A stretch of 64,000 bases of DNA. Source: Spirochaetia bacterium 38H-sp (GTDB taxonomy: Bacteria; Spirochaetota; Spirochaetia; Winmispirales; Winmispiraceae). How positions within the stretch are numbered: position 1 is the first letter of the stretch; each line of letters begins with the position of its first letter. This document shows positions 10,755 to 55,477 of the stretch, piece by piece. The notes beneath the pieces were generated by a model. It was not told where the DNA came from, searched no databases, and saw nothing but the letters and a program-made list of their open reading frames with translations. The stretch is taken from positions 1-64,000 of the forward strand of contig JBCHKQ010000006.1 of NCBI GenBank assembly GCA_039023545.1, written 5' to 3'. The translations under genes and the position numbers were made by a program.

Positions 10755-10883
10755 ATACCGAACGTCGGGACTGCGCCCTGTTATGTTTGTTCTTTGCATC
10801 TTCTGCCTAGAGGCAGCACAGTCCGCACTAGCGGACTGTGCGTTCGATATAAAAAGAAGGTCGCAGCCCTCCTGCCTTCGGCA
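10755..10883. repeat. Hairpin repeat locus 1: nested inverted pair
   Basis: A plus-oriented copy runs from ATACCGAACG at 10755 to the TGCC-TTC-GGCA mini-hairpin at 10873-10883. Its arms are GGGACTGCG (from 10767) and CGCAGCCC (near 10862). A second, minus-oriented copy sits inside its loop (10804-10850): GGCA end, then GCACAGTCCGC-acta-GCGGACTGTGC, then GTTCGATAT. The locus ends 4 nt from the stop codon of the ABC permease. Confidence 0.85.
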
Positions 10884-10886
10884 AAA

Positions 10887-12083
10887 CTATTCAAAGGCAA
10901 GAGCTTTGACAGGATCAAGACGGGAAGCTTTGTAAGCAGGATAAAATCCAAAGAAAACGCCCACTGCAAAGGCAAAGACAAAAGAGGCTGCCAACGCAAA
11001 CAGGTTGAGAGAAAAGTCCCAAGAAAACAGAAGAGTTATGCCCCAGCTGATTAATACCCCCATGATAAGCCCTATAAATCCTCCGGTAATTGTCAGAACA
11101 ACGGATTCAATCAGAAACTGAAGCCTGATAAAAAACGGGCTCGCACCCATTGCTTTTCTTATACCAATCTCACGAGTTCTCTCCGTAACTGAGACCAGCA
11201 TAATGTTCATAATACCGATTCCCCCAACTATAAGAGATATCGCAGCTACGCCCCCCAATAGAAGCGAAAGTGTATCCGTAACTTGAGAATACATGTCAGC
11301 GATGGTTGCAGCAGAGACAACCCTGAATGCTTCCGAATTATCCCCGGCAATGGATACAAGATAATCTTCCAGCTCGGAAGCTAAGTTTACAACATCAGCT
11401 CCATCTTTTACATTGACAATATACATACCTACAACATCGGTATTTTCTATAGAAGAAATATAAGTGGAGTAAGGAACAAAAACAGAAGAGTCAAAACTGA
11501 TACCAATAGTATCCGAGCGTGACTCCATAACACCCACCACCTTTAATCTGACGGGCACGTCCCTAAAGAGCCTTACATACTTTCCTATAGCATCTCCATC
11601 AGGGAATAAATCCTCAGCAACATCAGAACCAAGAACCACTACGTTTTTTCTTCTCTCATAATCAGAATCGGAAAAGAAACTGCCACTTGCTGCAGAATAA
11701 GAAAAAACAGAAGCAAAATCAGTAAACACGCCCATTACAGTTACATCAGAACTGTATTTACCATATGTCAGAGTAGCAGATGTACGCTGAGTAGGAAGAA
11801 CAGTATCAAAATCAGGAAACTGCTTTTGTATCTTTTCCGCAAGAGCAAAATCAGAAAGTCTTGCAGCCTCCCTCTCTCCCTTTCCTGGAAAAACAGAGAT
11901 AGTATTTAATCCTACGCTTTCTATCTGTTTTTTTACACTATTGGATGCACTGCTGCCAATGGATGTTATTATAATGACCGAAGCAACACCTATAATAATT
12001 CCCAGCATAGATAGAATGGTGCGGCCCCTGTTATGCCACAGACTGACAAAAGCCAATCTTATACTTTCCGCAATCATTTTCAT
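10887..12083 (-). CDS. MacB-type ABC transporter permease
   Basis: 398 aa. An N-terminal membrane helix (TILSMLGIIIGVASVIIITSIG, about 18-42), a large periplasmic MacB_PCD domain, and three C-terminal helices of the FtsX domain, with the conserved RTREIGIRKAMGAS cytoplasmic loop near 305-318. It is the separate permease half of a tripartite efflux system, with the ATPase encoded just upstream (4-nt ATGA overlap at 12083-12080). Export of a macrolide-like compound, peptide or envelope stress product is possible; the substrate is unknown. Confidence 0.92.
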   Translation of the reverse strand: MKMIAESIRLAFVSLWHNRGRTILSMLGIIIGVASVIIITSIGSSASNSVKKQIESVGLNTISVFPGKGEREAARLSDFALAEKIQKQFPDFDTVLPTQRTSATLTYGKYSSDVTVMGVFTDFASVFSYSAASGSFFSDSDYERRKNVVVLGSDVAEDLFPDGDAIGKYVRLFRDVPVRLKVVGVMESRSDTIGISFDSSVFVPYSTYISSIENTDVVGMYIVNVKDGADVVNLASELEDYLVSIAGDNSEAFRVVSAATIADMYSQVTDTLSLLLGGVAAISLIVGGIGIMNIMLVSVTERTREIGIRKAMGASPFFIRLQFLIESVVLTITGGFIGLIMGVLISWGITLLFSWDFSLNLFALAASFVFAFAVGVFFGFYPAYKASRLDPVKALAFE

Positions 12084-12763
12084 AAAGCACTCTCCACAAT
12101 TTTTCCATCCCTTAGTCTTATAGTCCTATCCGCATAAGAAGCTACCTCGTTATCATGGGTAACCACAATAATAGTCTTGCCTTTTTTATTTATTCCTTTA
12201 AAAAGCTCAAGTATTTTTTCACCCGTAACACTATCCAAGGCACCAGTAGGCTCATCAGCAAGAATAATTTCCGGATCATTTACAAGTGCTCTGGCTATAG
12301 CAGCACGCTGTCTTTGTCCTCCGGATAATTCTCCAGGTTTATGATACAATCTATCACCCAGACCTACCGCATTAAGCATTTCTACTGCTTTCTGACGCCT
12401 CTTTTGATAATCAATCCCTGCATAAAGTAAAGGCACTTCCACATTCTCTATAAGGTTAAGCCTGGGAAGCAAAAAAAACTGTTGGAAAACAAATCCAATT
12501 TTCTTATTTCTTATTTTTGCAAGCTCGGTCTCAGAATATCCTGACACATCTATTCCATCTATTTCTATAAGACCACTAGTTGGTACATCAAGACAACCTA
12601 TGATATGCATGAGAGTTGACTTACCAGAACCAGAAGGACCCATGATAGAAACAAACTCGCCAGCATGTATGTCAAAATCTACACCATCAAGAGCCCGCAC
12701 ACTTATGCCACCCATAGGGTAATCCTTTACAACACCTCTTCCGGAAACAACACAAGAACTCAT
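12080..12763 (-). CDS. MacB/LolD-type ABC transporter ATPase
   Basis: 227 aa. Walker A GPSGSGKST (near 42), Q-loop FVFQQFFLLPRL, signature LSGGQRQRAAIARAL (near 144) and Walker B IILADEPTGALD (near 163), then the H-loop VVTHD. It powers the FtsX-type permease encoded directly downstream and lies 6 nt after the adaptor gene, so ATPase, permease, adaptor and TolC-like channel form one operon. Confidence 0.95.
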   Translation of the reverse strand: MSSCVVSGRGVVKDYPMGGISVRALDGVDFDIHAGEFVSIMGPSGSGKSTLMHIIGCLDVPTSGLIEIDGIDVSGYSETELAKIRNKKIGFVFQQFFLLPRLNLIENVEVPLLYAGIDYQKRRQKAVEMLNAVGLGDRLYHKPGELSGGQRQRAAIARALVNDPEIILADEPTGALDSVTGEKILELFKGINKKGKTIIVVTHDNEVASYADRTIRLRDGKIVESAL

Positions 12764-12769
12764 ATTCCC

Positions 12770-13867
12770 CTACCTTCCCTGCTGTCCGTTGTTAGGTCTT
12801 TGTCCGGGACCTGGACCGGGACCTGGACCCATTCCCGGTATCTGTACAGGACCAAAAAGGCCATTATTTTCTTTGTCATCGGACTTACCATTTTTTGTTT
12901 TATCGCTGATAGGCATGATAACAGAGTCGCCTTCTTCCAAACCAGAAATAATCTTATAATAAGTGTCGTCATAGTCTTCCACTCTGATTTTCTTGAGCTC
13001 GGGACGATTGCTATCATCAGAAGGAGCCAGAAGAACGTAAAACTCATCATTTTTGGTAGAAACGGCCTTCTTTTCTATGAGCAATATTTTTTCAGATTCG
13101 GAAGTAATAATCTCGCCTGAGAAAGAAAAACCAGGTTTTATAACATCAGGAACAGAATCCAAGATAATTTTCACGGAAACAGCAGCAATTCCCTGACTGT
13201 TAACAGTAGCATATGGTGCAATGTAATCCACATAGCCATATACTTCCACATCGGGGATGACATCAAAAATAAATTTTACTTTTTGGCCTTCTCTAACTTG
13301 GGTAATATCAATTTCATCTACACTGACCTCTGCCATAAGCTTACTTGGGTCTAGAACACGTGCAATAATTTCATTCTCAGAGATAAAGGCTCCTTCTTCC
13401 ACACTAAAATCCGTAATTATCCCATTGGCAGGGCTATATACACTTTGATGTAAAAGATTACTACTTTCTATTTTTACCTTAAGACGAGCCAGAGAAATTT
13501 CTGACTCAGAACCAGAAACCTCCGCTTCACTCAAGCTTAAAATAGCATTTTCAAGATTGTATTTCTGCTCAATATCATCTAGTTTCAAAAGAAGCTCACC
13601 TTTGTTTACAGTATCTCCATCGGTGACAAATACAGAAGTAACAATTCCAGAACCATAGGAAACAACATCATAATCATACATTGCTTCTACATTACCAGAA
13701 ATATCAACTGTCTCACTACTAACCTTGCTTATAACCTTAAAGATATTTGGGACATTGGGAGAAGAAGTAGCCTTCTTCTGTCTAGCTATCATAAAAAAGG
13801 ATATGATTGCTACAACAATAATAACAATAAGAACTATAAACAATACTGTCTTTTTTTTTCTTGTCAT
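12770..13867 (-). CDS. MacA/HlyD-type periplasmic efflux adaptor
   Basis: 365 aa. An N-terminal membrane anchor (about 5-27) is followed by a split biotinyl-lipoyl domain (VTSVFVTDGDTVNKGELLLKLD near 79 and VYSPANGIITDFSVEEGAFI near 140) around a short coiled hairpin, then beta-barrel and membrane-proximal domains. The C-terminus is an unusual low-complexity tail with repeated Pro-Gly units (PGMGPGPGPGPGQRP). It bridges the inner-membrane ABC transporter and the outer-membrane channel. Its start overlaps the stop of the channel gene by 1 nt. Confidence 0.92.
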   Translation of the reverse strand: MTRKKKTVLFIVLIVIIVVAIISFFMIARQKKATSSPNVPNIFKVISKVSSETVDISGNVEAMYDYDVVSYGSGIVTSVFVTDGDTVNKGELLLKLDDIEQKYNLENAILSLSEAEVSGSESEISLARLKVKIESSNLLHQSVYSPANGIITDFSVEEGAFISENEIIARVLDPSKLMAEVSVDEIDITQVREGQKVKFIFDVIPDVEVYGYVDYIAPYATVNSQGIAAVSVKIILDSVPDVIKPGFSFSGEIITSESEKILLIEKKAVSTKNDEFYVLLAPSDDSNRPELKKIRVEDYDDTYYKIISGLEEGDSVIMPISDKTKNGKSDDKENNGLFGPVQIPGMGPGPGPGPGQRPNNGQQGR

Positions 13868-15255
13868 TAGAATTCCTCCAGTAAAAAATCTCTTTTTATT
13901 TGATAAAACAAAGACAACATATTAATCTTCGCTATAACAAGATCATAATTAGCTTCATCTATCTCTCTTTGACTATTTTTTACATCCAACTCAGAAGCAG
14001 CGCCTTTCTCAAATGCGGCATTAACAAGCTGATACTCTTCTTTTGATAGAATCAGATTTTCTCTAGCAAACTCTATATCCTCCTTATATTGTTGATACAA
14101 TAATTTACAATCTTTTATATTGTTTTCTGCAGAATAAATTTCTAATTCTTCCTTTAATCTAGCCTCTTCAAGACTATTTTGCCTTTCACGCACATCTTTA
14201 TTAGTTGTATCAATATTTATTCCTAGTCCTATAGCCATAGATAATGAGCTAGATGAAATATTATAATTTAAAGATATAGAAGCTGTAGAAGATCCAAGAT
14301 ATAAATTTGCTCCGGACTCAACAATTCCCTCTTCGTATCCAGAATTAGAAAAAACAATCTTACATCCTCCCAAAAGACTTATTTCTGGTATGGGGTTTAC
14401 AGCATCCTGATAATCCGCTTCTGTTTTTTCTGTGTATTTACTCGCTAAAATATAAGAAAAAGATAACTTACTATCTTCCGGAATATCAAATTCACTTTCA
14501 TCTATCTCCGGAATTTCATCAGTTCCTGTGAGGCTTTTATACATAGATCTTTTAATTTTAAGAGATGAAATAAGATTTTTCTTAGTATTTACTTGCTTTC
14601 TTAGTTCATAATCTTTTTTTCTGAATTCAAGAGAATTTTTATTAGTTGTAGATTTTTTAATAAGATTTATATCATTCTCCAATGAATCAATTTCCGAGTC
14701 CACAGCTAAGAGTTCTTTTTTAATCTCTATAATATCTTGTACTATATCTAGAATTTCTAGTGCCAACTCTGCTCTTCTCTTTATTATGTCTTGCTTTACG
14801 CTAAGGAGCTGATATTCTAGGGTCACATATTCAGATCTAGAAGAATATGGATATCCTATCAATGGCTGCTCTACAACAATCCCTGGAGAAAAAGAAAAAG
14901 AATCATCTATAGTATCAATTGAATATGGCATAGAAATAGAAAATGAAGTACCTAAGCTTCCCCCCATTGATATACCCAAAACAGGAGAAATAGAAATTGA
15001 ATATCCAGCTGTATCTGCATCTCTAGAGATGAAAATCAAACTATTGTCATAATCATCGTAAGATTCTCCTTGTAAAGATATATTTAGTCCTTCTGGCTCT
15101 AGATCAAGAAGACTATTTTCTTTCTGTAAATTTAGTATTTTATACTCCTTATCAATGGATAAGGCTGCATCCAATACAGAAGAAAAATCCAGAGAACTAA
15201 TAGAAGATAAAAACCCAAATAAGAATAAAACCAAAGTTATCCTATATCTCACCAT
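13867..15255 (-). CDS. TolC-like outer-membrane efflux protein
   Basis: 462 aa with a signal peptide (1-20). Long alpha-helical heptad-rich stretches (about 165-245 and 370-455) alternate with Ser-rich beta segments, as in the OEP/TolC fold. It lacks a lipobox. It is the first gene of the efflux operon and is transcribed divergently from the ECF sigma gene. Its promoter (GGAAT-N18-GTCAAA, 15310-15282) is a mirror of the sigma gene's own promoter, so the sigma factor probably controls the operon. Confidence 0.87.
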   Translation of the reverse strand: MVRYRITLVLFLFGFLSSISSLDFSSVLDAALSIDKEYKILNLQKENSLLDLEPEGLNISLQGESYDDYDNSLIFISRDADTAGYSISISPVLGISMGGSLGTSFSISMPYSIDTIDDSFSFSPGIVVEQPLIGYPYSSRSEYVTLEYQLLSVKQDIIKRRAELALEILDIVQDIIEIKKELLAVDSEIDSLENDINLIKKSTTNKNSLEFRKKDYELRKQVNTKKNLISSLKIKRSMYKSLTGTDEIPEIDESEFDIPEDSKLSFSYILASKYTEKTEADYQDAVNPIPEISLLGGCKIVFSNSGYEEGIVESGANLYLGSSTASISLNYNISSSSLSMAIGLGINIDTTNKDVRERQNSLEEARLKEELEIYSAENNIKDCKLLYQQYKEDIEFARENLILSKEEYQLVNAAFEKGAASELDVKNSQREIDEANYDLVIAKINMLSLFYQIKRDFLLEEF

Positions 15256-15281
15256 ACAATACTCCGAGTATTTTTACTCTA

Positions 15282-15310
15282 TTTGACAATATGGAATGTA
15301 AAAATATTCC
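15282..15310 (-). promoter_or_regulatory. ECF-type promoter of the efflux operon
   Basis: GGAAT (15310-15306), 18-nt spacer, GTCAAA (15287-15282). The -10-like box ends 26 nt before the ATG at 15255. It has the same two boxes and the same spacer as the divergent promoter at 15328-15356. Confidence 0.75.
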
Positions 15311-15327
15311 ATCATATAATTAAAAAT

Positions 15328-15356
15328 GGAATAAAAAAGATTAAAAACTTGTCTAA
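15328..15356 (+). promoter_or_regulatory. ECF-type autoregulatory promoter of the sigma operon
   Basis: GGAAT (15328-15332), 18-nt spacer, GTCTAA (15351-15356), 40 nt before the GTG start at 15397. GGAA in the -35 and GTC in the -10 are the usual ECF sigma recognition pattern. Confidence 0.75.
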
Positions 15357-15396
15357 TATAATAAGATGAGTAAAAATAACTACAGGGAAATAAGGT

Positions 15397-15921
15397 GTGG
15401 ACAACATAATAAAAGCAGCAAAAAACGGAGATAAAAAGGCTTTTTCTATGATAGTGGAAAAATATAAAGATGATGTTGCCAAAACAATAGCAGGAATCAC
15501 AGGCAAAACAGGCGATATAGAAGATATAGGACAGGATGTATTTATAAAACTTTATAAAAATATAAAAAATTTCAAGGGAGATTCTTCCATAAAAACATAT
15601 ATCATAAGAATAGCAATAAATGAAAGCTTAAATTATAAAAAAAAGAAAGCAAAAAGGCAGGAATCTCATCTTATAGAAGAAATCTCTGCTGCGGAAGAAA
15701 AGAATAATGTCCTGGAAAAGCAGATAATAAATACTGTCATGAAAAGGCTCAACAAAAAACACAGAACACTTCTAACCCTTTTTTACATAAATGATATGCC
15801 TGTCAAAGAAATCGCAATGACTCTTAATATACCCGAGGGAACAGTATTGTCTGGACTTAGTAGAGCAAGAAAAAAATTTAAGGAAATATACAGAACTCTT
15901 GAGGAGGAAAGTGATGAATGA
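15397..15921 (+). CDS. ECF-family RNA polymerase sigma factor
   Basis: 174 aa, GTG start behind aggg/aagg. Sigma region 2 covers about 1-75 (AFSMIVEKYKDDV; DIEDIGQDVFIKLYKNI; KTYIIRIAINESLNYKK) and region 4 about 108-165 (LNKKHRTLLTLFYINDMPVKEIAMTLNIPEGTVLSGLSRARKKF), with no region 3, as in RpoE-type factors. Its stop overlaps the next gene, which encodes a small membrane protein likely to be its anti-sigma factor. The divergent efflux operon shares its promoter motif. Confidence 0.94.
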   Translation: MDNIIKAAKNGDKKAFSMIVEKYKDDVAKTIAGITGKTGDIEDIGQDVFIKLYKNIKNFKGDSSIKTYIIRIAINESLNYKKKKAKRQESHLIEEISAAEEKNNVLEKQIINTVMKRLNKKHRTLLTLFYINDMPVKEIAMTLNIPEGTVLSGLSRARKKFKEIYRTLEEESDE

Positions 15922-16623: not shown

Positions 16624-16627
16624 AACA

Positions 16628-19389: not shown

Positions 19390-19411
19390 GAAATCTCCTA
19401 TTTAATATTTT

Positions 19412-22284: not shown

Positions 22285-22290
22285 GTGCTC

Positions 22291-22319: not shown

Positions 22320-22385
22320 AGATAATTGACTGCTTTGAGAGTTTTTTCCTTATCTAAAAGTTTTGAAAAATAGTTTGTGCAACAA

Positions 22386-22422
22386 GGGCAGCTAGACTTA
22401 AGGAGAGCTGCCCGTTCGGTAT
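22386..22422 (-). repeat. Hairpin repeat locus 2: single short copy
   Basis: Stem GGGCAGCT (22386-22393)/AGCTGCCC (22406-22413), followed by the conserved end CGTTCGGTAT (22413-22422). The CTGCC-NNN-GGCA module is missing or has become part of the stem. Confidence 0.8.
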
Positions 22423-22442
22423 AAATTATTTTTCCATTTATC

Positions 22443-22477: not shown

Positions 22478-23959
22478 ATGAGAAGGTTTGTATTCTTACT
22501 TGTTTTTTTATATCTTCTATCCTCATGTTCCGGAAAGTCATCTTACTACGGTTTCCCTGCAAAGGGTCCTATCATAGAATATTCTACGGGTATTGAGGCT
22601 TCATCAGAGCAAAATACGGGTAGACTCGACAATATAGAGTCCAATCTCAGCCCATACATCTCTATTCCAGATGATTATGTTATTGTGGATATTATTCAGA
22701 CCAATCTGGATATAGATGGTGATGAAGAACAGGTAATCGCTTATAAGAAGAAAAATGATGCAGCAAGCAGGATAGAGCTTGCGGTTGTAGATTATGACAG
22801 CCTTAGGGAGGTTTACAGGCGGGCATGGTCCACTGTTCTAGAGGCTGTTAATCCACACTTTTTTAGTGTTACACCTATGGACATAACAGGAAACCATATC
22901 AATGAGCTTATTGTAGAGGGAATAGATGCTCGCGGCGAGCAAGTGTTTACCATATACCAGAGAGAGCTTTCTCCATGGGGAATTTCTCTTATCTATTCTA
23001 CCATTTTTGATATAAGGACAAAAGGAAAGGTTGAAATTCTGCATAAAAACAGATCTGCAGCATATTCCAGAGGTCAAGCTGACGGGGAAGCTTTTGATTT
23101 GCAAGTCACTCAGGAGCTTTCTGACAATAGTGAGAAGAATATAATAACAACAACGGTTTACAAATGGAATCCTCTCAACAGAACATACGAAAAGGCAGGC
23201 TATACGGAAGAGAACAAGAAGATAGAATCCGATGATTTAAAAAAGCTCTTTGAAGGCACAGCAAATGATATTGAGACCTTTCTCTCGGGACCATGGTTTA
23301 AAGAATCGGGCAGTAAGCGCCTTTTTGTAGATTTTGACCTACAAAATAGAGAGATAACCTTTTTCTCAACCGATATTCAAGAAGCATATATTTGGAAAAG
23401 CTCAGTAAAAAATATCTACAGCGGACTTGGAATCAATGCAAGGAGCAAAATTCTTGCCAATTTGTCACAATATTTCTACGTTACAATTACAGATGAAAAC
23501 ACAATAAAAATATCAGCAAGCAATCTGCAAACACAGGACACATTCTCATGGTCGGGAACGTATTCTCGCCTAACCTACGGATTGCAAAAAAGCCTTCTAA
23601 AGTATGAGTACATCCCTATACTTGGAGCAAGTTATCTGTCCGGACGTTTTTATAACGAAACCAGCGGCGGAGAAATTATATTCTACACACCCAACAGAAT
23701 AAAAATAATATCACCTGATAAAAACATAGAAGGATATTATACAATATACAAAATAAAAGACCATACAATCCTTGAGATAAGAATAAAGGATACTCAGAAA
23801 AGACTTTACTACAGCCTCCTGTATACCGAAACCAACACAGACATAGGAAAAAAGAAAGAAATAACCCTCACACCAGTCACCCTTAAAGCCAGAGAAATAA
23901 CACCAATACCAGGAGAACTATCAACCACATTGCAGCAACTAGAAACAAAAAAACAATAA
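22478..23959 (+). CDS. Lipoprotein of unknown function (possibly pallilysin-related)
   Basis: 493 aa. Lipoprotein signal with lipobox LLSSC (Cys about 17). The N-terminal half resembles FG-GAP/VCBS-type repeats (DIIQTNLDIDGDEEQVIAYKK near 70; DITGNHINELIVEG near 133). The C-terminal half contains repeated beta-strand segments of the kind seen in lipocalin-like domains (YKIKDHTILEIRIKD). I have a vague memory of treponemal pallilysin-related adhesins with a similar layout, but there is no HExxH motif and this is not secure. It is a single-gene unit between two hairpin repeats, with a predicted leaderless promoter. Confidence 0.75.
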   Translation: MRRFVFLLVFLYLLSSCSGKSSYYGFPAKGPIIEYSTGIEASSEQNTGRLDNIESNLSPYISIPDDYVIVDIIQTNLDIDGDEEQVIAYKKKNDAASRIELAVVDYDSLREVYRRAWSTVLEAVNPHFFSVTPMDITGNHINELIVEGIDARGEQVFTIYQRELSPWGISLIYSTIFDIRTKGKVEILHKNRSAAYSRGQADGEAFDLQVTQELSDNSEKNIITTTVYKWNPLNRTYEKAGYTEENKKIESDDLKKLFEGTANDIETFLSGPWFKESGSKRLFVDFDLQNREITFFSTDIQEAYIWKSSVKNIYSGLGINARSKILANLSQYFYVTITDENTIKISASNLQTQDTFSWSGTYSRLTYGLQKSLLKYEYIPILGASYLSGRFYNETSGGEIIFYTPNRIKIISPDKNIEGYYTIYKIKDHTILEIRIKDTQKRLYYSLLYTETNTDIGKKKEITLTPVTLKAREITPIPGELSTTLQQLETKKQ

Positions 23960-23993
23960 ACCGAACGGCGCTGACTACAGTCATCGCCTTTTT
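23960..23993 (+). repeat. Hairpin repeat locus 3: short copy acting as terminator
   Basis: The stop codon TAA (23957-23959) runs into ACCGAACG. GGCG-c-TGACT-ac-AGTCA-t-CGCC (23967-23988) then forms a hairpin followed directly by TTTTT (23989-23993). It looks like an intrinsic terminator for the lipoprotein gene built from the repeat end. Confidence 0.75.
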
Positions 23994-24002
23994 ACAAAAA
24001 AC

Positions 24003-36069: not shown

Positions 36070-36134
36070 GTTTTATTTTATCAGTACACAAAAAAAAACC
36101 AAGCCCTCAGCCCCTCAAAAAATTCAAATACATT

Positions 36135-36253
36135 ATACCGAACGCAAGGACCGCGCAAAATGCGCGTCCCTGCTGCCTTTGGCAAAAAAAAGACGAATTT
36201 CAAATGACCCCAAAACACAAAAAAGGCGCAGCAAAAGCTGCGCCGTTCGGTAT
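36135..36253. repeat. Hairpin repeat locus 4: inverted pair
   Basis: The plus copy is 36135-36184: ATACCGAACG, stem GGACCGCGCA/TGCGCGTCC, then CTGCC-TTT-GGCA. The minus copy is 36225-36253: GGCGCAGC-aaaa-GCTGCGCC, then GTTCGGTAT. It occupies the gap between the LptD-like promoter and the 3' end of uvrA. Confidence 0.85.
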
Positions 36254-36300
36254 ATTATAAAAAACTTTAAGATGTATACTTTTTATACTATTCCTACTTC

Positions 36301-39123
36301 TCACAACATGTCTTTAAGATATTGTCCGGTATAAGAACGCTCACAGGAGGCAACATCCTCAGGAGTACCCATGGCAATAACCTCTCCGCCACCGGCACCT
36401 CCTTCTGGTCCCAGATCAATAAGCCAATCAGCTTGTTTTATCACATCAAGATTATGCTCAATAAGAACCACTGTGTTGCCCATATCCACAAGCTGATTGA
36501 GCACGGTAAGAAGCTGCTTGACATCTGCAAAATGCAAACCAGTAGTAGGTTCATCCAGAAGATAAAGAGTCCTGCCAGTACTCCTCTTGGACAGTTCAAG
36601 CGCAAGCTTAATCCGTTGAGCCTCACCACCGGATAGGGTTGTAGCAGGCTGTCCCAGTTTTACATAACTTAGCCCCACATCTAGCAATGTTTTGAGCTTT
36701 CTCTCTATGGCAGGAACAGCTGAGAAAAACTCATATGCCTCTTCTACAGACATCTCCAAAACATCATAAATATTCTTTCCCTTATATCGTATATCAAGCG
36801 TATCCCGGTTAAAACGCCTGCCGCCGCAGACATCACAGGTAACATAGACATCAGGCAAAAAATGCATCTCTATCTTGATGGTACCATCACCTTTACAGTT
36901 CTCGCACCTTCCTCCCTTTACATTAAAAGAAAATCTGCCAGGTTTATAACCACGTGCCTTGGACTCTGGAATACCTGCAAAAAGCTCCCTTATAGGTGTA
37001 AAAAGCCCTACATAAGTTGCCGGATTAGAACGTGGAGTCCTGCCTATAGGACTCTGGTCTATATTGATAAGCTTATCTATGGCCTCGACACCCTCTATAG
37101 AATCATAAGAACCTTCCCGCATCCTTCCTCTGCTGACCCTGTTATAGACAGCCGGCAAAAATACATCGTTGAGCAACGTTGATTTACCAGAGCCAGACAC
37201 ACCTGTTATAACGATAAATGTCCCCAGAGGAAATCTCGCATCTATATTCTTGAGATTATGCTCTCGCGCACCACGCAGCACAATCTCGTTACCATTGCCC
37301 TTTCTTCTCTTTTCAGGGACATCTATCTTGAGCTTACCAGACAAAAACTTGCCGGTGAGACTCTCCTCAGATGCACAGACATCCTCCACAGTCCCCTGAG
37401 CTACAACCCTGCCTCCATTGACACCTGCTCCGGGCCCCAAGTCAACAATCCAATCCGCAGTACGCAAAGTCTGCTCATCATGTTCCACAACAACAAGCGT
37501 ATTACCTATATCACGTAGATGCACAAGCGTATCAAGGAGCTTCTGATTATCCCGCTGATGCAATCCTATAGTAGGCTCATCCAAAACATACAAGACCCCC
37601 ACAAGGCTGGCACCAATCTGCGTGGCAAGCCTAATACGCTGTGCCTCACCACCTGATAACGTAGACGCCCGTCTTTCAAGAGAAAGATATCCTAGGCCAA
37701 CATTCTCCATAAAAGTCAAGCGACTTACAATCTCTTTAAGAATCTGAGATGCAATCTCTTTCTCATTCTGAGACAACCCCTCAGAAAAACCCCTAAAAAA
37801 TACAAGCAAATCGCTTACGGACATACACGTAAGCTCATAAATATTCTTCCCCCCTACGGTAACAGCAAGCACCTCTGGTTTTAGCCTTTTTCCCCCGCAT
37901 TCCTCACACACACGCTGGGACATAAACCCCTCAAGCCAGTCCTTAACCTCTTCCGAAGAAGACTCCATATAGCGCCTCTTTAGGTCCTCCGTAACACCTG
38001 GGAAACGAGTCCTGTACTCAAACCTACCCGTCCTGCGCTTATTTTCATAAGCGACCTCAAACTCTCTATCTGACCCATAGAAAAGAGCCTCTTTAACCTC
38101 CTCAGGAAGCTCACCTATAGGCGTATTGATATCAACACCAAACTCCTTAAAAAAAGCCTCAAACCTGCTACGATTCCAGTTAGCATCCGGATTATAAGGA
38201 ACAAGCCCTCCCTCCAAAAAAGAGAGAGACGGATCCGGCACAATCAAGTCAGGATCAAACTCAAGAGTAACCCCTATACCAGAGCAAGCAGGACAAGCCC
38301 CATACGGACTATTAAAAGAAAACAACCTAGGCTCAAGCTCCGGAAAACTCACACCACACACAGGACAAGCATGTTTCTGAGAAAAAACATGCTCTTTTTC
38401 TCCATCCTTTGTAAGCTCCAACACCACACACAAACCAGCAGCAAGTTCAAGAGCAGTCTCCACAGCCTCAACCAACCTTCTTCTCACATCCCCGCCAATA
38501 ACCAGCCTATCAACAATAACCTCAATTGAATGTTTATGCTTTTTTGATAACACAATCTCTTCATCCAACTGTCTTACAACCCCATCCACACGCACACGCA
38601 CAAAACCTGCACGCCTTGCATCCTCCAGTACCCTACCATGCTCTCCCTTCTTGCCACGCACAACAGGTGCAAGCACCATAACGCGCGCTCCCTCCCCCAG
38701 ATGCAAAACCTGCTCCACAATCTGATCTACAGACTGCTCACTAATCTCACGCCCACACACATGGCAATGAGCAACACCAAGCCTAGCAAAAAGCAGGCGA
38801 AAATAATCATAAATCTCCGTTACAGTTCCTACCGTAGAGCGAGGATTACGATGAGTAGTCTTCTGTTCGATAGAAATAGCAGGAGAAAGCCCTTCGATAT
38901 AATCCACATCAGGCTTATCCATCCTGCCCAAAAACTGCCTGGCATAAGCGGACAAAGACTCAACATAACGCCTCTGTCCCTCCGCATAAATAGTATCAAA
39001 AGCCAGAGACGACTTACCCGACCCCGACAAACCAGAAATCACAATCAAACTATCGCGCGGAAGCTCCAAATCAATATTACGCAAATTATGCTCACGCGCA
39101 CCCTTAATAACAATCTTACCCAT
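36301..39123 (-). CDS. uvrA: Excinuclease ABC subunit A
   Basis: 940 aa, full length. Two ABC modules: Walker [21 protein letters not shown] (near 32) and [13 protein letters not shown] (near 640), with signature [24 protein letters not shown]. Zinc-binding pairs include [17 protein letters not shown] and [11 protein letters not shown]...CDVCGGRR. It is the damage-recognition ATPase of nucleotide excision repair. The promoter lies 7 nt from the ATG, predicting a leaderless transcript. It is a single-gene unit flanked by hairpin repeats. Confidence 0.98.
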
Positions 39124-39159: not shown

Positions 39160-39184
39160 GAATACACGATAACAAAAAACACTT

Positions 39185-39253
39185 ACACCGAACGTCGTCC
39201 CTGCACATACATAGCAAAAACAAAGGAAAACGCAGGGACTCCTGCCTCCGGCA
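39185..39253 (+). repeat. Hairpin repeat locus 5: single full copy
   Basis: ACACCGAACGTC, stem GTCCCTGC (39197-39204)/GCAGGGAC (39232-39239), then CTCCTGCC-TCC-GGCA ending at 39253. It lies between uvrA and nadE. Confidence 0.85.
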
Positions 39254-41098: not shown

Positions 41099-41192
41099 AC
41101 ACAACTCCTCTGACAACTATAAACCATACCCAATACACAAAAACATCTTGGGAATATTACACTATACTATTTTTTACCCTGCAAAAACAACA

Positions 41193-41336
41193 ATACCGAA
41201 CGTCGGGCATGCGCCAGTAGAAAAGAAGCAAAAAGGCGCATACCCTCCTGCCTACGGCAAAAAAAGACCAATCACTGTTATATCTTCTTCCGCCAGGAGG
41301 CAGCGCAGAACGCAGTGCGGGCTGCGCGTTCGGTGT
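41193..41336. repeat. Hairpin repeat locus 6: inverted pair
   Basis: The plus copy is 41193-41259: ATACCGAACGTC, stem GGGCATGCGCC/GGCGCATACCC, CTCCTGCC-TAC-GGCA. The minus copy is about 41290-41336: CCGCCAGGAGGCAGC module, stem near GCGCAGAACGC/GCGGGCTGCGC, then GTTCGGTGT. It fills most of the nadE/membrane-protein intergenic region. Confidence 0.85.
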
Positions 41337-41353
41337 AAAACTGCTTTTCCTAC

Positions 41354-43815: not shown

Positions 43816-43816
43816 A

Positions 43817-43889
<73 letters not shown>

Positions 43890-43903
43890 GTCTTGTTGTC
43901 AGT

Positions 43904-43932: not shown

Positions 43933-43953
43933 TATCTGTAACAAAAATTTTTT

Positions 43954-44100
43954 ATACCGAACGTCGTCCCTCTGCCATAGGACAAAAGAAAAAATGCAGG
44001 GACTCCTGCCACCGGCAGAACAATATACTAGCTGTTACCATCTGCTAAGCTTTGCTTTTGCCAAAGGCAGGCAGACTGTCGTTGACAGTCTGCCGTTCGT
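43954..44100. repeat. Hairpin repeat locus 7: inverted pair
   Basis: The plus copy is 43954-44017: ATACCGAACGTC, stem GTCCCTCTGC/GCAGGGAC, CTCCTGCC-ACC-GGCA. The minus copy is about 44059-44100: TGCC-AAA-GGCAG, GCAGACTGTC-gtt-GACAGTCTGC, CGTTCG. It fills most of the roughly 300-bp gap between tRNA-Val and purL; the remaining bases hold the tRNA and purL promoters. Confidence 0.85.
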
Positions 44101-44158
44101 TTTTTTTATTTTTTACGACCTGTCATCATTTTACACAGAGAAACATGCTGCTATTCCT

Positions 44159-44187
44159 TTGACAAAATGCGTTAAATTTGGAATTAT
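44159..44187 (+). promoter_or_regulatory. purL promoter, predicted (near-)leaderless
   Basis: TTGACA (44159-44164), 17-bp spacer, AATTAT (44182-44187). The first ATG is 5 nt and the second 11 nt downstream. Confidence 0.65.
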
Positions 44188-44192
44188 GCAGT

Positions 44193-47960: not shown

Positions 47961-47977
47961 TATATGATTGTAAAAAA

Positions 47978-48012
47978 GGCAGCAGGCCGTATGGCTGGCT
48001 GCCGTTCGGTAT
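47978..48012 (-). repeat. Hairpin repeat locus 8: single short copy inside the pur operon
   Basis: GGCAGC (47978-47983) pairs with GCTGCC (47998-48003) with an inner GGCC/GGC pairing, then CGTTCGGTAT (ending 48012). It sits in the 72-bp gap between purL and purE and may stabilise or partly terminate the purL message. Confidence 0.75.
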
Positions 48013-48032
48013 AAATTGACTAAGGAGTTAGG

Positions 48033-49918: not shown

Positions 49919-49939
49919 ATCTCCTCATAGGAAGGATAT

Positions 49940-50959
49940 ATGAAAGAAAAAAAAGATTCTCTCACCTATAAGGCTGCAGGTGTAGATATAGAAGAAGGAT
50001 ATAAAACCGTCCAGAGCATAAAAAAAGAGGTTGAGAGTACATTTGACAGCAATGTCATGGATGGAATAGGCAGTTTTGCCGGTATGTATGCTCTTGCAGG
50101 CTACAGAGAGCCTGTTCTTGTCTCAGGTACGGATGGTGTTGGGACAAAGCTTGAGGTTGAGTTTGCAATGGACCGTTATGAAAATGCCGGTATAGACTGC
50201 GTTGCAATGTGCGTCAACGATATACTCTGCCATGGAGCAAAACCGCTTTTCTTTCTTGATTATCTTGCCTGTGGAAAGCTGGAGGCAGAAAAGGCGGCCA
50301 GGCTGGTAAAAGGCATTGCGGAAGGCTGCAGACAGGCAGATTGTTCTCTGATTGGCGGAGAGACAGCAGAGATGCCTGGATTCTATCCTCCTGGTAAATA
50401 TGATATAGCAGGCTTTGCCGTAGGTGTCGTAGAAAAATCCACAATAATAAACGGAAGCAATATACAAGAAGGAGACCTTTTGATAGGGCTGGCATCAAGC
50501 GGTGTCCATAGCAATGGCTTTTCCCTTGTTAGAAAAGCGGTTACAAACTATGAGGAAAAATATAATGGGCATATTGCGGGAGAACTTCTTGTAACGCCTA
50601 CAAAAATATATGTAAAACCCATTCTTGGTCTTCTTACAAAGCTGCCTGGTGCTGTTAAAGGTATGGCTCACATAACAGGAGGCGGTTTTAGAGAAAACAT
50701 TCCCAGAATGTTTAGAGAAGATTTTACAGCGGTTATAAAAAAAGGAAGCTGGGAAATACTGCCAGTATTTAAATACCTAATGAGTAAAGGAATATCAGAA
50801 GAAGAGATGTACAACACCTTTAATATGGGTATAGGATTTGTCCTGACAATAACCCCAGAGGCAAAAGATGCGGTAATAAAATACATGGAAAACATTGGTA
50901 TAAAAGCTACACAGATAGGTATTATAAAAAAAGGGAAAAAAGGCATATGTTTAGAATAG
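49940..50959 (+). CDS. purM: Phosphoribosylformylglycinamidine cyclo-ligase (AIR synthetase)
   Basis: 339 aa, ATG behind aggaagg. Begins LTYKAAGVDIEEGYKTVQSIK. ATP-binding VLVSGTDGVGTKLEVEF near 55 and AMCVNDILCHGAKPLFFLDY near 90 are diagnostic. It closes the imidazole ring of FGAM to give AIR. Its 3' end overlaps purN by 13 bp. Confidence 0.97.
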   Translation: MKEKKDSLTYKAAGVDIEEGYKTVQSIKKEVESTFDSNVMDGIGSFAGMYALAGYREPVLVSGTDGVGTKLEVEFAMDRYENAGIDCVAMCVNDILCHGAKPLFFLDYLACGKLEAEKAARLVKGIAEGCRQADCSLIGGETAEMPGFYPPGKYDIAGFAVGVVEKSTIINGSNIQEGDLLIGLASSGVHSNGFSLVRKAVTNYEEKYNGHIAGELLVTPTKIYVKPILGLLTKLPGAVKGMAHITGGGFRENIPRMFREDFTAVIKKGSWEILPVFKYLMSKGISEEEMYNTFNMGIGFVLTITPEAKDAVIKYMENIGIKATQIGIIKKGKKGICLE

Positions 50960-51552
50960 GCGTTCTGGTATCCGGAAGCGGAACCAATCTCCAATATATA
51001 ATCGATACCATAAAACAAAACAAACTTGATATAAAAATAGAAAAAGTAATAAGTGACAGAGAAGCTTATGCCTTAGAGAGAGCGAAAAAAGCAAACATAA
51101 AAACTATTCTTGTTGACAGAAAAATCTATAAAAACAAACTTTCGGACAAAATACTGGAAGAACTGGGAGAAGACCTGGACTTGATAGTTCTTGCCGGCTT
51201 TTTGTCAATACTTAGAGGAAGAATACTTGAGGTATATAAAAATCGCATAATAAACATACACCCTTCCCTTATACCAAGTTTTTGCGGTGAGGGTATGTAT
51301 GGTCTCAAGGTACATCAGGCAGCATTGGACTACGGCGTAAAGGTATCCGGCTGCACAGTACATATAGTAGACAGTGGAACTGATACAGGGCCCATAATCC
51401 TGCAAAAGACAGTACCAGTATATGCAGAAGACACTGCAGAAACCCTGCAAGAACGCATACATCAGCAGGAATATATTGCTCTAGAAGAAACAATAAGACT
51501 ATTTGCAGAAAACAGGATAAAAATAGAGGAAAGGAAGGTGTATATAAAATGA
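50947..51552 (+). CDS. purN: Phosphoribosylglycinamide formyltransferase
   Basis: 201 aa. GVLVSGSGTNLQYIID at the N-terminus, the catalytic Asn/His in NIHPSLIPSF near 105, and the Asp in VDSGTDTGPII near 140 are the GART signature. It uses 10-formyl-THF. It overlaps purM upstream and purD downstream (ATGA). Confidence 0.97.
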   Translation: MFRIGVLVSGSGTNLQYIIDTIKQNKLDIKIEKVISDREAYALERAKKANIKTILVDRKIYKNKLSDKILEELGEDLDLIVLAGFLSILRGRILEVYKNRIINIHPSLIPSFCGEGMYGLKVHQAALDYGVKVSGCTVHIVDSGTDTGPIILQKTVPVYAEDTAETLQERIHQQEYIALEETIRLFAENRIKIEERKVYIK

Positions 51553-52814
51553 AGATGATGATAATAGGAAGCGGTGGTAGAGAACATGCTCTTGCATGGA
51601 AATGTGCACAGTCCCCCAAAATACAAAAAATATACTGCTGCCCTGGTAATGGAGGAACTGCTACACTGGAAAAAGCAGAGAACATAGACATATCTGACTA
51701 CCAAAAAATGGCGGACTTTGCAAAAGAAGAAGGGGTAGAACTAGTAATGGTAGGACCAGAAGCTCCCCTTGTAGAAGGGATATCGGATATATTCCAAAAA
51801 GAAAGAATACCTATCATAGGTCCAGTAAAAGAAGCCGCAATGCTGGAAGGAAGCAAAGCCTTTGCCAAAGAGTTTATGAAAAAATATAATGTTGCAACCG
51901 CAGATTACATAATAACTGACTCATATGACAAAGCAATGGACTTTGTAAGAACTGCTAACTATCCTCTGGTAATAAAAGCGGACGGACTTGCTGCAGGAAA
52001 AGGAGTTAGAATAATAGACAATCGTCAGGATGCAGAAAGAACCATAAAAGAGTACATGATAGAAAAAATATTCGGTGATGCGGGAACAAAAATAGTAATA
52101 GAAGAATACCTCACAGGCATAGAAGCCTCCATTCTGAGCATAACCGACGGCAGCACCATAATCCCGTTTATCTCAGCCCAGGACCATAAACCCATAGGAG
52201 AAGGAAACACAGGTGACAACACAGGCGGAATGGGCGTAATAGCACCCAACCCCGCAGTGGACAAAAAGGTCATGGCAGACTTTACAGAAAACATCATGAA
52301 ACCCACCTTAGAAGGCATAAAAAAAGAGGGCTGGGACTTTAGAGGCATAATATTTTTTGGCATCATGATAACAAAAAAAGGTGCAAAATTACTCGAATAT
52401 AATGTACGCTTTGGCGACCCTGAGACACAAGCGTTGCTGCCAATGCTCAAGACAGACCTTATAGATATCCTTACAGCCTGCTGGGAGAAAAAACTCCACA
52501 CAATAGAACTGCAATGGAATGCACAACACTCTTGCTGCGTAGTTGCAGCATCTGGAGGCTATCCGGGCTCGTACAAAAAGGGCTATCCAATAGAAGGCCT
52601 AGAAAAAACAAAAAACACAATCTTCATAGCAGGCGCAAAAAAAGAAGGAGAAAAACTCATAACAAGCGGCGGCCGCGTACTTGCAGTATGTGCAACAGGC
52701 AGTACAAGAGAAGAAGCAAGAAAAAAAGCCTACTCAGACATGCAAAAAATACACTTTACAGACATATACTACAGAAAAGACATAGGCACAATACTACCCA
52801 AAACCAGTCAATAA
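51549..52814 (+). CDS. purD: Phosphoribosylamine-glycine ligase
   Basis: 421 aa ATP-grasp enzyme. MMIIGSGGREHALAWKCAQS at the N-terminus, VIKADGLAAGKGV near 140, and EYNVRFGDPETQALLP near 285 are the family signatures. It adds glycine to phosphoribosylamine. Last gene of the operon; its stop codon TAA is also the first bases of hairpin repeat locus 9. Confidence 0.97.
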   Translation: MKMMIIGSGGREHALAWKCAQSPKIQKIYCCPGNGGTATLEKAENIDISDYQKMADFAKEEGVELVMVGPEAPLVEGISDIFQKERIPIIGPVKEAAMLEGSKAFAKEFMKKYNVATADYIITDSYDKAMDFVRTANYPLVIKADGLAAGKGVRIIDNRQDAERTIKEYMIEKIFGDAGTKIVIEEYLTGIEASILSITDGSTIIPFISAQDHKPIGEGNTGDNTGGMGVIAPNPAVDKKVMADFTENIMKPTLEGIKKEGWDFRGIIFFGIMITKKGAKLLEYNVRFGDPETQALLPMLKTDLIDILTACWEKKLHTIELQWNAQHSCCVVAASGGYPGSYKKGYPIEGLEKTKNTIFIAGAKKEGEKLITSGGRVLAVCATGSTREEARKKAYSDMQKIHFTDIYYRKDIGTILPKTSQ

Positions 52815-52884
52815 ACCGAACGTCGGGAGAGCGCCAGTTTGGAAAAACCCATCTGCATTGGCGCTCCCCCTCCTGCCTTCGGCA
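52815..52884 (+). repeat. Hairpin repeat locus 9: single full copy between convergent genes
   Basis: It begins at the purD stop (TAAACCGAACGTC), then stem GGGAGAGCGCC (52824-52834)/GGCGCTCCCCC (52860-52870), then CTCCTGCC-TTC-GGCA ending at 52884, 5 bp from the convergent nfnB stop. It fills the whole intergenic space. Confidence 0.85.
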
Positions 52885-52889
52885 TTCCT

Positions 52890-54386
52890 TTAGTGAGAAG
52901 ACCTTAAAAAACTATCTATACTTTTTGCAGCACGGCGTCCTGCCCCCATAGCCTCTATGACAGTCGCAGCACCAGTTACGATATCTCCACCTGCAAAAAT
53001 CCTAGGATGAGAAGTACAAAGATTATCATCTGCAACAATATTGCCCCTTGAGTTAACCTTTACCTCTGGCATAGTGGTTCTTATAAGAGGATGAGCTAGG
53101 TTTCCAAGTGCAAAGATAACAGCATCAAGCTCAAGCACATGCTCACTGCCCTTAACAAGCACAGGTCTTGCGCGGCCGCTCTCATCGGGTTCCCCCAGCT
53201 CATAAGATACACACTCTGCAGCAACAACCCTGCCATGTTCATCACCGATTATCCTAGAAATATTCTGCAAAAACAAAAACTCAATTCCCTCTTCCATCGC
53301 ATGAATAACCTCTTCTCGCCTGGCAGGCATCTCTTTCTCTGTTCTGCGATAAACAACAAACACCTTATCCGCACCCAGCCTAAGCGCCATACGAGCTGCA
53401 TCCATAGCAACATTACCACCACCTACAACAGCAACCCGCTTTGCAGGATAAACAGGAGTATCAGCTTTTTCTCTATCATAAGCCTTGAGAAGATTGGCAC
53501 GTGTGAGATATTCATTAGCAGAAAAAACACCAACAAGATCCTCACCCTCAATCCCAGGAAATTTTGGAAGCCCGGCCCCTGCACCTATAAAAATAGCATC
53601 AAAACCATCCTCCTCAAGAAGTTGAGAAAGAGTACGGGTCTTACCAATCAGAAAATCATATACAAACCTGACACCCAATTGTTCTAGATGAGCAATCTCC
53701 TCCTTTACAAGAACTTTAGGAAGCCTAAACTCGGGTATACCATAGACCATAACACCGCCAGCCTTGGGAAAAGCATCAAAAACAGTAACTGCATGCCCAA
53801 GCCTTCTAAGCTCAACAGCAGCACTAAGACCCGCAGGACCACTGCCGACAACAGCAACATTAAAACCACTATCAGGAGCCACATCAGGAAGAGAATACTC
53901 ACCACTAGTTCTCTCCCAGTCCGCAACAAAGCGCTCAAGCCTACCTATGGACACAGCCTTAAGAGGGTCTTTAAACACTTTACCAACAGTACAAGCAGCC
54001 TGACACTGTCTCTCCTGTGGACAAACCCTACCGCAAACAGAAGGAAGCAGATTTGTGCGCTTTATAACATCAACAGCAGCCTTAAAATCCCTCTTCTGTA
54101 TCTCAGAAATAAAAGAAGGAATATCTATAGAAACAGGACAACCTTCTATGCATGGAGCATTCTTACAATCAAGACATCTGTTAGCCTCCACAACAGCCTG
54201 AGCTTCGGAATATCCCAAGGCAACCTCCTCAACAGAAGAACGCCTTTCCTCAGGCGCTCTCTCCGGCATTTTCTGCAGAGGAATCGCAAGCCTTTCTTTA
54301 TTGGTAAGCTCCTTACCCTCTATATCAGCAAGGATATTCTTTGCAATAACATCAAGTTCATCCTGAGTAAAAAACTTCTCTGACAT
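52890..54386 (-). CDS. nfnB: NADH-dependent ferredoxin:NADP+ oxidoreductase large subunit (NfnB; GltD-like)
   Basis: 498 aa from ATG 54386. The N-terminal Fe-S region has CxxCx4Cx3C at 71-83 (CLDCKNAPCIEGC) and a second set near 117-129 (CGRVCPQERQCQAAC). The FAD motif VVGSGPAGLSAAVELRRLG and NAD(P) motif VAVVGGGNVAMDAAR follow. Next to an NfnA-type FNR subunit this indicates the flavin-bifurcating transhydrogenase rather than glutamate synthase small subunit. Alternative name: sulfide dehydrogenase SudA. It lies 2 nt after nfnA. Confidence 0.92.
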   Translation of the reverse strand: MSEKFFTQDELDVIAKNILADIEGKELTNKERLAIPLQKMPERAPEERRSSVEEVALGYSEAQAVVEANRCLDCKNAPCIEGCPVSIDIPSFISEIQKRDFKAAVDVIKRTNLLPSVCGRVCPQERQCQAACTVGKVFKDPLKAVSIGRLERFVADWERTSGEYSLPDVAPDSGFNVAVVGSGPAGLSAAVELRRLGHAVTVFDAFPKAGGVMVYGIPEFRLPKVLVKEEIAHLEQLGVRFVYDFLIGKTRTLSQLLEEDGFDAIFIGAGAGLPKFPGIEGEDLVGVFSANEYLTRANLLKAYDREKADTPVYPAKRVAVVGGGNVAMDAARMALRLGADKVFVVYRRTEKEMPARREEVIHAMEEGIEFLFLQNISRIIGDEHGRVVAAECVSYELGEPDESGRARPVLVKGSEHVLELDAVIFALGNLAHPLIRTTMPEVKVNSRGNIVADDNLCTSHPRIFAGGDIVTGAATVIEAMGAGRRAAKSIDSFLRSSH

Positions 54387-54388
54387 TA

Positions 54389-55237
54389 CTACTCTCCCTC
54401 TCCTGGAACAATAGAATCTAGTCTGCACTGATGATCCTTTTCTTTTTCAATATCCTTATAAGCGCCAAGACGCTTAAACATAAGGTCAAAATCTACAAGA
54501 TGTCCGTCAAACTCAGGCCCGTCCACACATACAAACTTAACCTCATCACCCACGCGCACTCTGCATCCACCGCACATACCAGTACCGTCGACCATAATCG
54601 TATTAAGCGAAACCACAGTAGGAATGGCATAAGGCCTTGTGGTCTCAGCACAGAACTTCATCATAATAGGAGGCCCAATGGCAACAACCTCATCCACTCC
54701 ACCCTGCTCGCACAGCTCTTTTAAAGGCTCAGTAACAAGAGCCTTTCTACCGTAAGAACCGTCATCCGTACACACAATAAGCTTATCCGACACAGAAGAC
54801 AACTCCTTTTCCATGATAACAAGCTCGCGGGAACGCGCACCTATTATGCTGATAACCTCAGCTCCAGTCTCCTTAAATGCACGCGCAATGGGAAATACTG
54901 GAGCAGCCCCTATACCGCCTCCAACACACACAACACGTCCACGCTTCTCAATATGCGTAGGATGCCCAAGAGGCCCCAACACATGGGCAACACCCTCTCC
55001 CACAGAAAGAGAACACAACATCCTACTCGTCTTTCCCACAACCTGCACAATCAAAGTAATAGTCCCCTCTGCCCTATCCACATCAGCAACACTTAGAGGT
55101 ATTCTCTCACCAAACTCATCGTCAAGCTGAATCACAACAAACTGCCCTGGCTTATGAGAAGTTGCAACATGTGGCGCTTCCAAAACCAGTCGGAAAACAT
55201 TCTCGGATAACCTGAGTTTTTCTCTTATCGCAAACAC
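54389..55237 (-). CDS. nfnA: NADH-dependent ferredoxin:NADP+ oxidoreductase small subunit (NfnA; FNR-like)
   Basis: 282 aa from GTG 55237, chosen because GGAGG lies 5 nt upstream. FAD-binding barrel (KPGQFVVIQLDDEFGERIPLS), the NAD-binding segment VCVGGGIGAAPVFPIA near 100, and a C-terminal [2Fe-2S] site (DGTGMCGGCRV, KFVCVDGPEFDGH). With NfnB it couples NADH and reduced ferredoxin to NADP+ reduction, a common feature of anaerobes. Confidence 0.92.
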   Translation of the reverse strand: MFAIREKLRLSENVFRLVLEAPHVATSHKPGQFVVIQLDDEFGERIPLSVADVDRAEGTITLIVQVVGKTSRMLCSLSVGEGVAHVLGPLGHPTHIEKRGRVVCVGGGIGAAPVFPIARAFKETGAEVISIIGARSRELVIMEKELSSVSDKLIVCTDDGSYGRKALVTEPLKELCEQGGVDEVVAIGPPIMMKFCAETTRPYAIPTVVSLNTIMVDGTGMCGGCRVRVGDEVKFVCVDGPEFDGHLVDFDLMFKRLGAYKDIEKEKDHQCRLDSIVPGEGE

Positions 55238-55343
55238 AAAACCCTCCAAAAAATAAAACACTGTACCACTTTGTGCAATATTATATATAAAAAAATTAAT
55301 AAAGAAAAGTAGATACCATAAGATAATAAATTATCAAAACTTA

Positions 55344-55477
55344 GATCGAACGTCGTACCCGCACCATGTAAGGAATAAAATACAGCATGGTGCGGCCACT
55401 CCTGCCTTTGGCAAAATGCATTTTTCTTTCCGCCGGGAAGCAGCGTGAGATGCGAAAGCATCTCACGCGTTCGGTAT
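55344..55477. repeat. Hairpin repeat locus 10: inverted pair
   Basis: The plus copy is 55344-55413: GATCGAACGTC, stem CCGCACCATG/CATGGTGCGG, ACTCCTGCC-TTT-GGCA. The minus copy is about 55430-55477: CCGCCGGGAAGCAGC module, GTGAGATGC-gaaa-GCATCTCAC, then GCGTTCGGTAT. It fills most of the 286-bp gap between nfnA and the CapA-like gene. Confidence 0.85.

What the first reader, a model, noticed from the sequence alone, without database searches (positions are those of the whole stretch)
10755..55477. Ten-locus family of modular hairpin repeats with conserved ends and locus-specific stems
A unit ATACCGAACG-(stem)-loop-(stem')-[ACTC]CTGCC-NNN-GGCA occurs at ten intergenic sites (10755, 22386, 23960, 36135, 39185, 41193, 43954, 47978, 52815, 55344). 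The ends and the mini-hairpin are nearly invariant. The main stem sequence differs at each site, yet both arms change together (e.g. GTCCCTGC/GCAGGGAC, GGGCATGCGCC/GGCGCATACCC, CCGCACCATG/CATGGTGCGG). Such covariation means the fold, in RNA or single-stranded DNA, is what is selected or recognised. It resembles REP/REPIN or integron attC logic, but I know no published family with these ends.
Basis: partly seen in the sequence, partly recalled or inferred. Interest (0 to 1): 0.75.

Follow-up and report, generated by a model that had tools for sequence, protein, structure and literature searches.

The report
Orphan REP-like tagged hairpins in spirochaete
A bacterium that is probably a relative of the spirochaete Winmispira carries roughly 450 copies of a small DNA element made of a fixed 'tag' plus a hairpin whose stem differs at nearly every site but stays paired; it is built like known REP elements but with a new tag and no recognisable copying enzyme, so how it spread is an open, testable question.

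Summary
The tag ATACCGAACG occurs 327 times in the 2.35 Mb genome, against 9 for the reversed control. In an 864 kb sample, 168 of 192 ACCGAAC sites are followed directly by a hairpin ending in a CTGCC-NNN-GGCA mini-hairpin (110) or a T-tract (58). Stems covary very strongly. Such copies align with one another at 76-85%, so they spread by copying. The family was not found in order-mates, 248 class genomes, GTDB contigs or viral contigs. Best reading: a REP/REPIN/BIME-like palindromic element with a new tag. The genome has no RAYT/IS200-type transposase, so it is an orphan family. Stem mismatches are strand-asymmetric (82 C-containing against 14 G-containing on the tag strand), opposite to the genome's ordinary terminators. 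Some copies probably double as terminators. The copying mechanism is inferred, not shown.

The parts
10751..10893 (+). Nested unit: long half (tag at 10755, 5' arm) with a short half (tag end GTTCGAT at 10842-10848) inside its loop; 3' arm and mini-hairpin of the long half beyond it
   Evidence: 73-78% identical to C1:733518 and C1:687343
10804..10852 (-). Short half inside the nested unit, one tag mismatch
22374..22424 (-). Type I half: tag + hairpin + T-rich tail, tag 58 nt upstream of the gene at 22478
23956..24000 (+). Type I half: tag directly after the TAA stop codon of 22478-23959, hairpin + TTTTT
36133..36255 (.). Inverted pair directly downstream of uvrA (36301-39123, minus strand): type II short half (+, tag 36137) and type I half (-, tag 36251), 114 bp tag to tag
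39183..39251 (+). Long half (CGTC foot), single
41191..41338 (.). Complete long-half + short-half unit, tags 41195+ and 41334-, 139 bp
43952..44105 (.). Long half (tag 43956+) with a short half whose tag has decayed (44101-, AACGAACG), 145 bp
47966..48014 (-). Type I half between purL-like and purE-like genes, opposite to their direction
52811..52882 (+). Long half; tag starts directly after the TAA stop codon of the purD-like gene 51549-52814
55341..55479 (.). Complete unit: long half (tag variant ATCGAACG, 55345+) and short half (tag 55475-), 130 bp

Best explanation
This is a lineage-specific family of REP-like (REPIN/BIME-type) non-autonomous palindromic elements. The basic half is TTATACCGAAC followed at once by a hairpin and then by a small TGCC-NNN-GGCA hairpin or a T-tract. 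Two such halves, one long-looped and one short-looped, face each other with tags outermost and form the element of about 145 bp that was copied around the genome (shown: architecture, dispersal by copying, covariation, strand asymmetry). I infer that it spread as single-stranded DNA: an enzyme acting in trans recognised the tag and the hairpin shape, perhaps with its mid-stem irregularity, rather than the stem sequence, so stems could drift as long as both arms agreed. That enzyme is not recognisable in this genome. Solitary halves are remnants or separately kept copies. Those next to stop codons, above all the T-tract form, probably now serve the host as gene-end terminators or 3'-end stabilisers (inferred from position only).
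For: Copy number 327 against 9 control; at least 150 short-half structure-model hits over contigs C1-C7 (where only 150 of 828 candidates were scored). 30/30 close pairs inverted with tags outside; with relaxed tags 67/165 copies have an inward-facing partner, against 1 tandem and 0 outward. 18 of 30 pairs are long+short heterodimers. Copies from different loci, several of them whole units, align at 76-85% over about 96-171 bp. No target duplication, as expected for IS200/REP-type movement. Mid-stem mismatch peak around stem position 6-7, as in E. coli REPs, where a mid-stem mismatch is needed by TnpA_REP (PMC8266576). HH heterodimers with structured spacers are documented for REPs (PMC3733652). 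The strand asymmetry does not follow gene direction or replication strand; the complement strand is predicted more stable in both RNA and DNA models (p 6e-7 to 5e-4), while motif-less terminators lean the other way.
Against: No Y1 transposase (control rings) or TnpB (control rings) in a 99.9% complete genome; the Y2 search was uninformative. The tag is neither GTAG nor, in most copies, CGTC. Stems are more diverse than I would expect of a REP family, and near-identical recent copies are few, so recent activity is not shown. The tag is perfect in most copies, solitary ones included, which fits host selection in place at least as well as past mobility.
Confidence: 0.62

Rival explanations
1. Host transcription element: a tagged terminator or 3'-end structure kept in place by selection on RNA, not a mobile element.
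For: Among single copies the tag is within 20 nt of the stop codon in 31/35 convergent and 15/20 same-direction tandem cases, and a TAA/TAG stop abuts the tag in 12 copies; 58/168 have T-tracts; convergent gaps are preferred.
Against: 74 of 160 intergenic copies (46%) point the other way; 13 pairs lie between divergent genes; 52 of 86 strong terminators have no tag; the tag-strand RNA is the less stable fold, unlike in ordinary terminators; copies from different loci, several of them whole units, share sequence over 96-171 bp.
Confidence: 0.2
2. Template-switch maintenance: the hairpins covary because replication errors copy one arm onto the other, without selection for the fold.
For: Pair types change with almost no G-T intermediates on the tag strand; the mechanism is documented for hairpins (PMC8794818).
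Against: Does not explain the invariant tag, the dispersed bipartite unit or the strand asymmetry of mismatches; it may act in addition.
Confidence: 0.08
3. Ordinary MITE of a DDE transposase with a 12 bp terminal inverted repeat TTATACCGAACG.
For: Terminal inverted repeats and a 136-158 bp length.
Against: No target-site duplication; no multi-copy insertion sequence in 864 kb; solitary halves are common; each end has its own hairpin of unrelated sequence.
Confidence: 0.07
4. Integron attC-like recombination sites.
For: Hairpin with strand-biased irregularities, often next to stop codons.
Against: Both orientations, no array, no integron integrase; no GTTRRRY core.
Confidence: 0.01

Closest known systems
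GTAG-type REPs / REPINs with RAYT (TnpA_REP), e.g. E. coli BIMEs, P. fluorescens REPINs
   Same: Short unpaired tag 5' of an imperfect hairpin; extragenic; hundreds of copies; tag-outside inverted doublets; long-loop + short-loop heterodimers as in Enterobacteriaceae; mid-stem mismatches
   Different: Tag TTATACCGAAC, not GTAG; no RAYT in the genome; stems differ almost everywhere; extra mini-hairpin or T-tract after each stem
CGTC-tagged REPs (incl. Neisseria dRS3), reported also from Spirochaetes
   Same: No dedicated transposase; HH dimers; in 25 of 168 copies CGTC directly precedes the stem
   Different: The other 143 copies lack CGTC at the stem foot; none of the 24 IIa stems starts with AT; no CCA tail; longer conserved tag
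Intrinsic terminators
   Same: 58/168 copies have a GC-rich hairpin + T-tract, mostly after stop codons
   Different: Fixed 5' tag; reversed stability asymmetry; 110/168 copies lack the T-tract
Bacterial MITEs (NEMIS/Correia, RUP, ERIC)
   Same: Size and terminal inverted repeats
   Different: No target duplication found; independent hairpins at each end; solitary halves

Membership tests
GTAG REP/REPIN | GTAG (or close variant) tetranucleotide tag | tested here: not met
   Tag is TTA(T/A/G)ACCGAAC
GTAG REP/REPIN | RAYT / Y1 transposase in the genome | tested here: not met
   PF01797: 0 matches in own genome, control rings in 5 of 14
GTAG REP/REPIN | Extragenic imperfect palindrome in high copy | tested here: met
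   160 of 168 intergenic; hairpin directly after tag
GTAG REP/REPIN | Inverted doublets with tags outside | tested here: met
   30/30 close pairs; 67 inward, 1 tandem, 0 outward
CGTC REP | CGTC tag at the stem foot | tested here: not met
   25/168 copies only
CGTC REP | Stem of 8-9 bp starting with AT, CCA tail | tested here: not met
   0 of 24 IIa stems start with AT; tail is TGCC-NNN-GGCA or T-tract
Integron attC | Integron integrase and cassette array | tested here: not met
   Only XerC, XerD and a fragment; copies scattered in both orientations
Intrinsic terminator | T-tract after hairpin in the direction of the upstream gene | tested here: inconclusive
   Met in 38 of 160 intergenic copies; 18 T-tract copies point the other way
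MITE | Target-site duplication | tested here: not met
   No excess of flank identity in 43 pairs
IS91/Helitron-like | Y2 HUH transposase | tested here: inconclusive
   PF04986: none, but no control genome rang

The most novel reading that the evidence does not exclude
A third superfamily of REP-like elements, moved by an enzyme of an unrecognised kind that reads a long tag and hairpin shape but not stem sequence, so that stems are free to diversify; or a domesticated genome-wide set of tagged hairpins read by an unknown host protein.
Probability: 0.25. Interest if true: 0.8.

Novelty: new variant of a known kind. Interest (0 to 1): 0.55.

Why it matters
It is a REP-like system without a recognisable RAYT, probably in a deep spirochaete lineage, with covarying stems at some 450 sites of one genome. 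REPs without a dedicated transposase (the CGTC type) were described in 2013 and what spreads them was left open in that paper. This family offers many copies, a clear tag and a defined bipartite unit with which to ask that question, and a natural experiment on how hairpins evolve (selection, strand choice or template switching). The strand asymmetry gives a simple way to ask which strand of a repeat is recognised.

Tried and rejected
Presence elsewhere: in order-mates G001/G002 the hits inspected look coding, with no hairpin; the best other class genome, G233 with 42 tags, shows no tagged hairpin at the ten sites looked at; the GTDB contig scan gave 5 single hits in unrelated taxa, taken as chance; viral contigs 0. 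An analogous family in the sister genome: none among hairpin feet. A REPtron-like gene flanked by copies: 23 ORFs flanked on both sides were listed; three of them tested by Pfam are UvrA, NAD synthetase and PurL, one has a pallilysin domain, and the rest were judged only by eye, so no transposase candidate came up but one is not excluded. Plain terminator reading: rejected as a full explanation by orientation and stability. Replication-strand explanation of the asymmetry: rejected, same on both strands. TSD search negative. A literature search for intergenic hairpin repeats in spirochaetes found nothing. The whole genome was not available as a file, so detailed counts are from an 864 kb sample. 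I first read the mismatch asymmetry as proof that the complement strand folds; that is too strong, because E. coli REPs also carry C-containing mid-stem mismatches on the strand their transposase binds.

Full report
What is there. The window is G000:C6:1-64000 of a 2.35 Mb, 25-contig genome and is 39% GC. Its two order-mates have genome lengths 2,560,222 and 2,472,645 bp and are about 61% GC in the stretches read. From memory these are the two sequenced Spirochaeta (Winmispira) thermophila genomes; RepRanger lists DSM 6578 as 2.6 Mb and 61% GC, and NCBI places Winmispira in Winmispirales. The organism is therefore probably an unnamed relative of Winmispira; this is inference.

The tag. ATACCGAACG occurs 164+163 times in the genome, against 5+4 for the reversed pattern; ACCGAACG 246+244 against 50+33. 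I took C1:1-800000 and the window (864 kb) as a sample. Of 192 ACCGAAC sites, 168 are followed within 0-3 nt by a hairpin that ends in a T-tract (type I, 58) or in TGCC-NNN-GGCA (type II, 110); 160 of the 168 are intergenic by a simple gene caller of my own. The same classifier accepts 34 of 576 locally shuffled tails and 45 of 600 random intergenic sites. Scaling gives about 450 exact-tag copies per genome (estimate). The tag consensus is TTA(T/A/G)ACCGAAC; the following G pairs with the C that closes the stem.

Covariation. For 19 copies of equal span, the 11-bp stem has 89% standard pairs against 55% after shuffling, covariation score 0.846 against 0.184, and sliding the register by 1-3 columns drops it to at most 0.22; ten of eleven pairs show changes on both sides. 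A second, disjoint set of 18 gives the same. One caution: copies entered these sets because a hairpin was found, so the percentage paired is inflated; the slid controls share the sequences but not the register.

Pairs and units. All 30 neighbouring pairs closer than 350 bp are inverted with tags outermost. With tags allowed two mismatches, 67 of 165 copies have an inward-facing partner at 60-200 bp, 1 a tandem one, 0 an outward one. In 18 of the 30 pairs one half has a long loop and the other a short one, giving a 136-158 bp unit. Copies from different loci, several of them whole units, align over 96-171 bp at 76-85% identity, which shows spread by copying rather than repeated invention. In a third form the short half lies in the loop of the long half; the window copy at 10755 has two relatives. 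No target duplication is seen.

Where it sits. For copies in the direction of the preceding gene the median distance from stop codon to tag is 10 nt in both types. Among single copies, the tag is within 20 nt of the stop in 31/35 convergent and 15/20 same-direction tandem cases, while reversed tandem copies are less tightly placed (10/23, measured to the hairpin end). In 12 cases the stop codon TAA/TAG abuts the tag. Convergent gaps carry copies more often than divergent ones. Type I copies favour the direction of the upstream gene (38 to 18), type II do not (48 to 56). 52 of 86 strong terminators have no tag, so the tag is not a general terminator part.

Strand asymmetry. On the tag strand, stem mismatches contain C 82 times and G 14 times (p 7e-13); A-C 46, G-T 11 (p 3e-6); they peak at stem positions 6-7. 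The bias holds in all four sub-types, in nearly all gene contexts (type II convergent copies are the exception, 6 G-T to 3 A-C) and on both replication strands; ordinary motif-less terminators show G-T 11, A-C 6. Predicted stability agrees: the complement strand folds better in RNA and DNA models for each class, the reverse for ordinary terminators, though weakly there. Two readings remain. Either the complement strand is the functional fold, or the tag strand is and needs a mid-stem irregularity with C, as in E. coli REPs, where the mismatches A12A13-G26C27 are required and C27 is contacted by the transposase (PMC8266576). A mutational bias against G in these stems is a third, less likely, source. 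Copies are related, so the p-values are optimistic.

Enzymes. No Y1 transposase and no TnpB, with controls ringing; the Y2 search was uninformative because no control rang. Tyrosine recombinases: a XerD-like gene next to ftsZ, a XerC-like gene next to hslV/topA, and a fragment (gene names by context, from general knowledge). No multi-copy insertion sequence in 864 kb.

Distribution. Among 248 class genomes the next highest count is 42 (G233), and none of the hits inspected there is a tagged hairpin. The scan of GTDB contigs gave five single hits in unrelated taxa (records very near the window may be left out), viral contigs none. No analogous tagged hairpins in 360 kb of the sister genome. So the family is, as far as these collections show, confined to this genus, of which one genome is held.

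Comparison. Di Nocera and colleagues describe GTAG and CGTC superfamilies of REPs, the latter without a dedicated transposase and present in Spirochaetes among others; tag-outside (HH) dimers and heterodimers with different loops and structured spacers are common (PMC3733652). The present family works like these. It is not a member of either by tag, stem or tail. REPIN theory treats the doublet as the mobile unit and singlets as remnants (PMC3116915), which fits the pair data; however, solitary halves here keep perfect tags and stems, which suggests that they are also under selection in place.

Verdict. A new variant of a known kind: an orphan REP-like family with a new tag, a bipartite unit and extreme but compensated stem diversity. 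Architecture, dispersal, covariation and asymmetry are shown; single-stranded mobilisation by a lost or unrecognised enzyme and later host use are inferred.

Noticed in passing
G000 C1:114190-115690 (L014): CRISPR-like array with 20 copies of a repeat ending ...ACCTGACCAAAGGGATTACGAC; a tagged hairpin copy (C1:115863-) lies just beyond it.
   Followed up: partly
G001 (L119-L136): Sister genome shows 9-mers repeated about 33 times (such as TTTCAGTAT, ATCCGCTAG, GTTGCAGCC), probably a CRISPR repeat.
   Followed up: no
window 22478-23959 +: Protein with a Pallilysin beta-barrel domain (PF18663; from memory known from Treponema).
   Followed up: no
G000 C1:119751-124445 (L014-L015): Several tandem-repeat stretches 82-94% alike over this region and an inverted relative at C1:491351, probably repetitive genes.
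   Followed up: no
window 10755, C1:733518, C1:687343: Nested form of the element (short half inside the loop of the long half), three copies 73-78% alike.
   Followed up: partly
G000 C7:36939-37046 (L118): Fragment of a tyrosine recombinase C-terminus with a stop inside, a possible relic of a mobile element.
   Followed up: no
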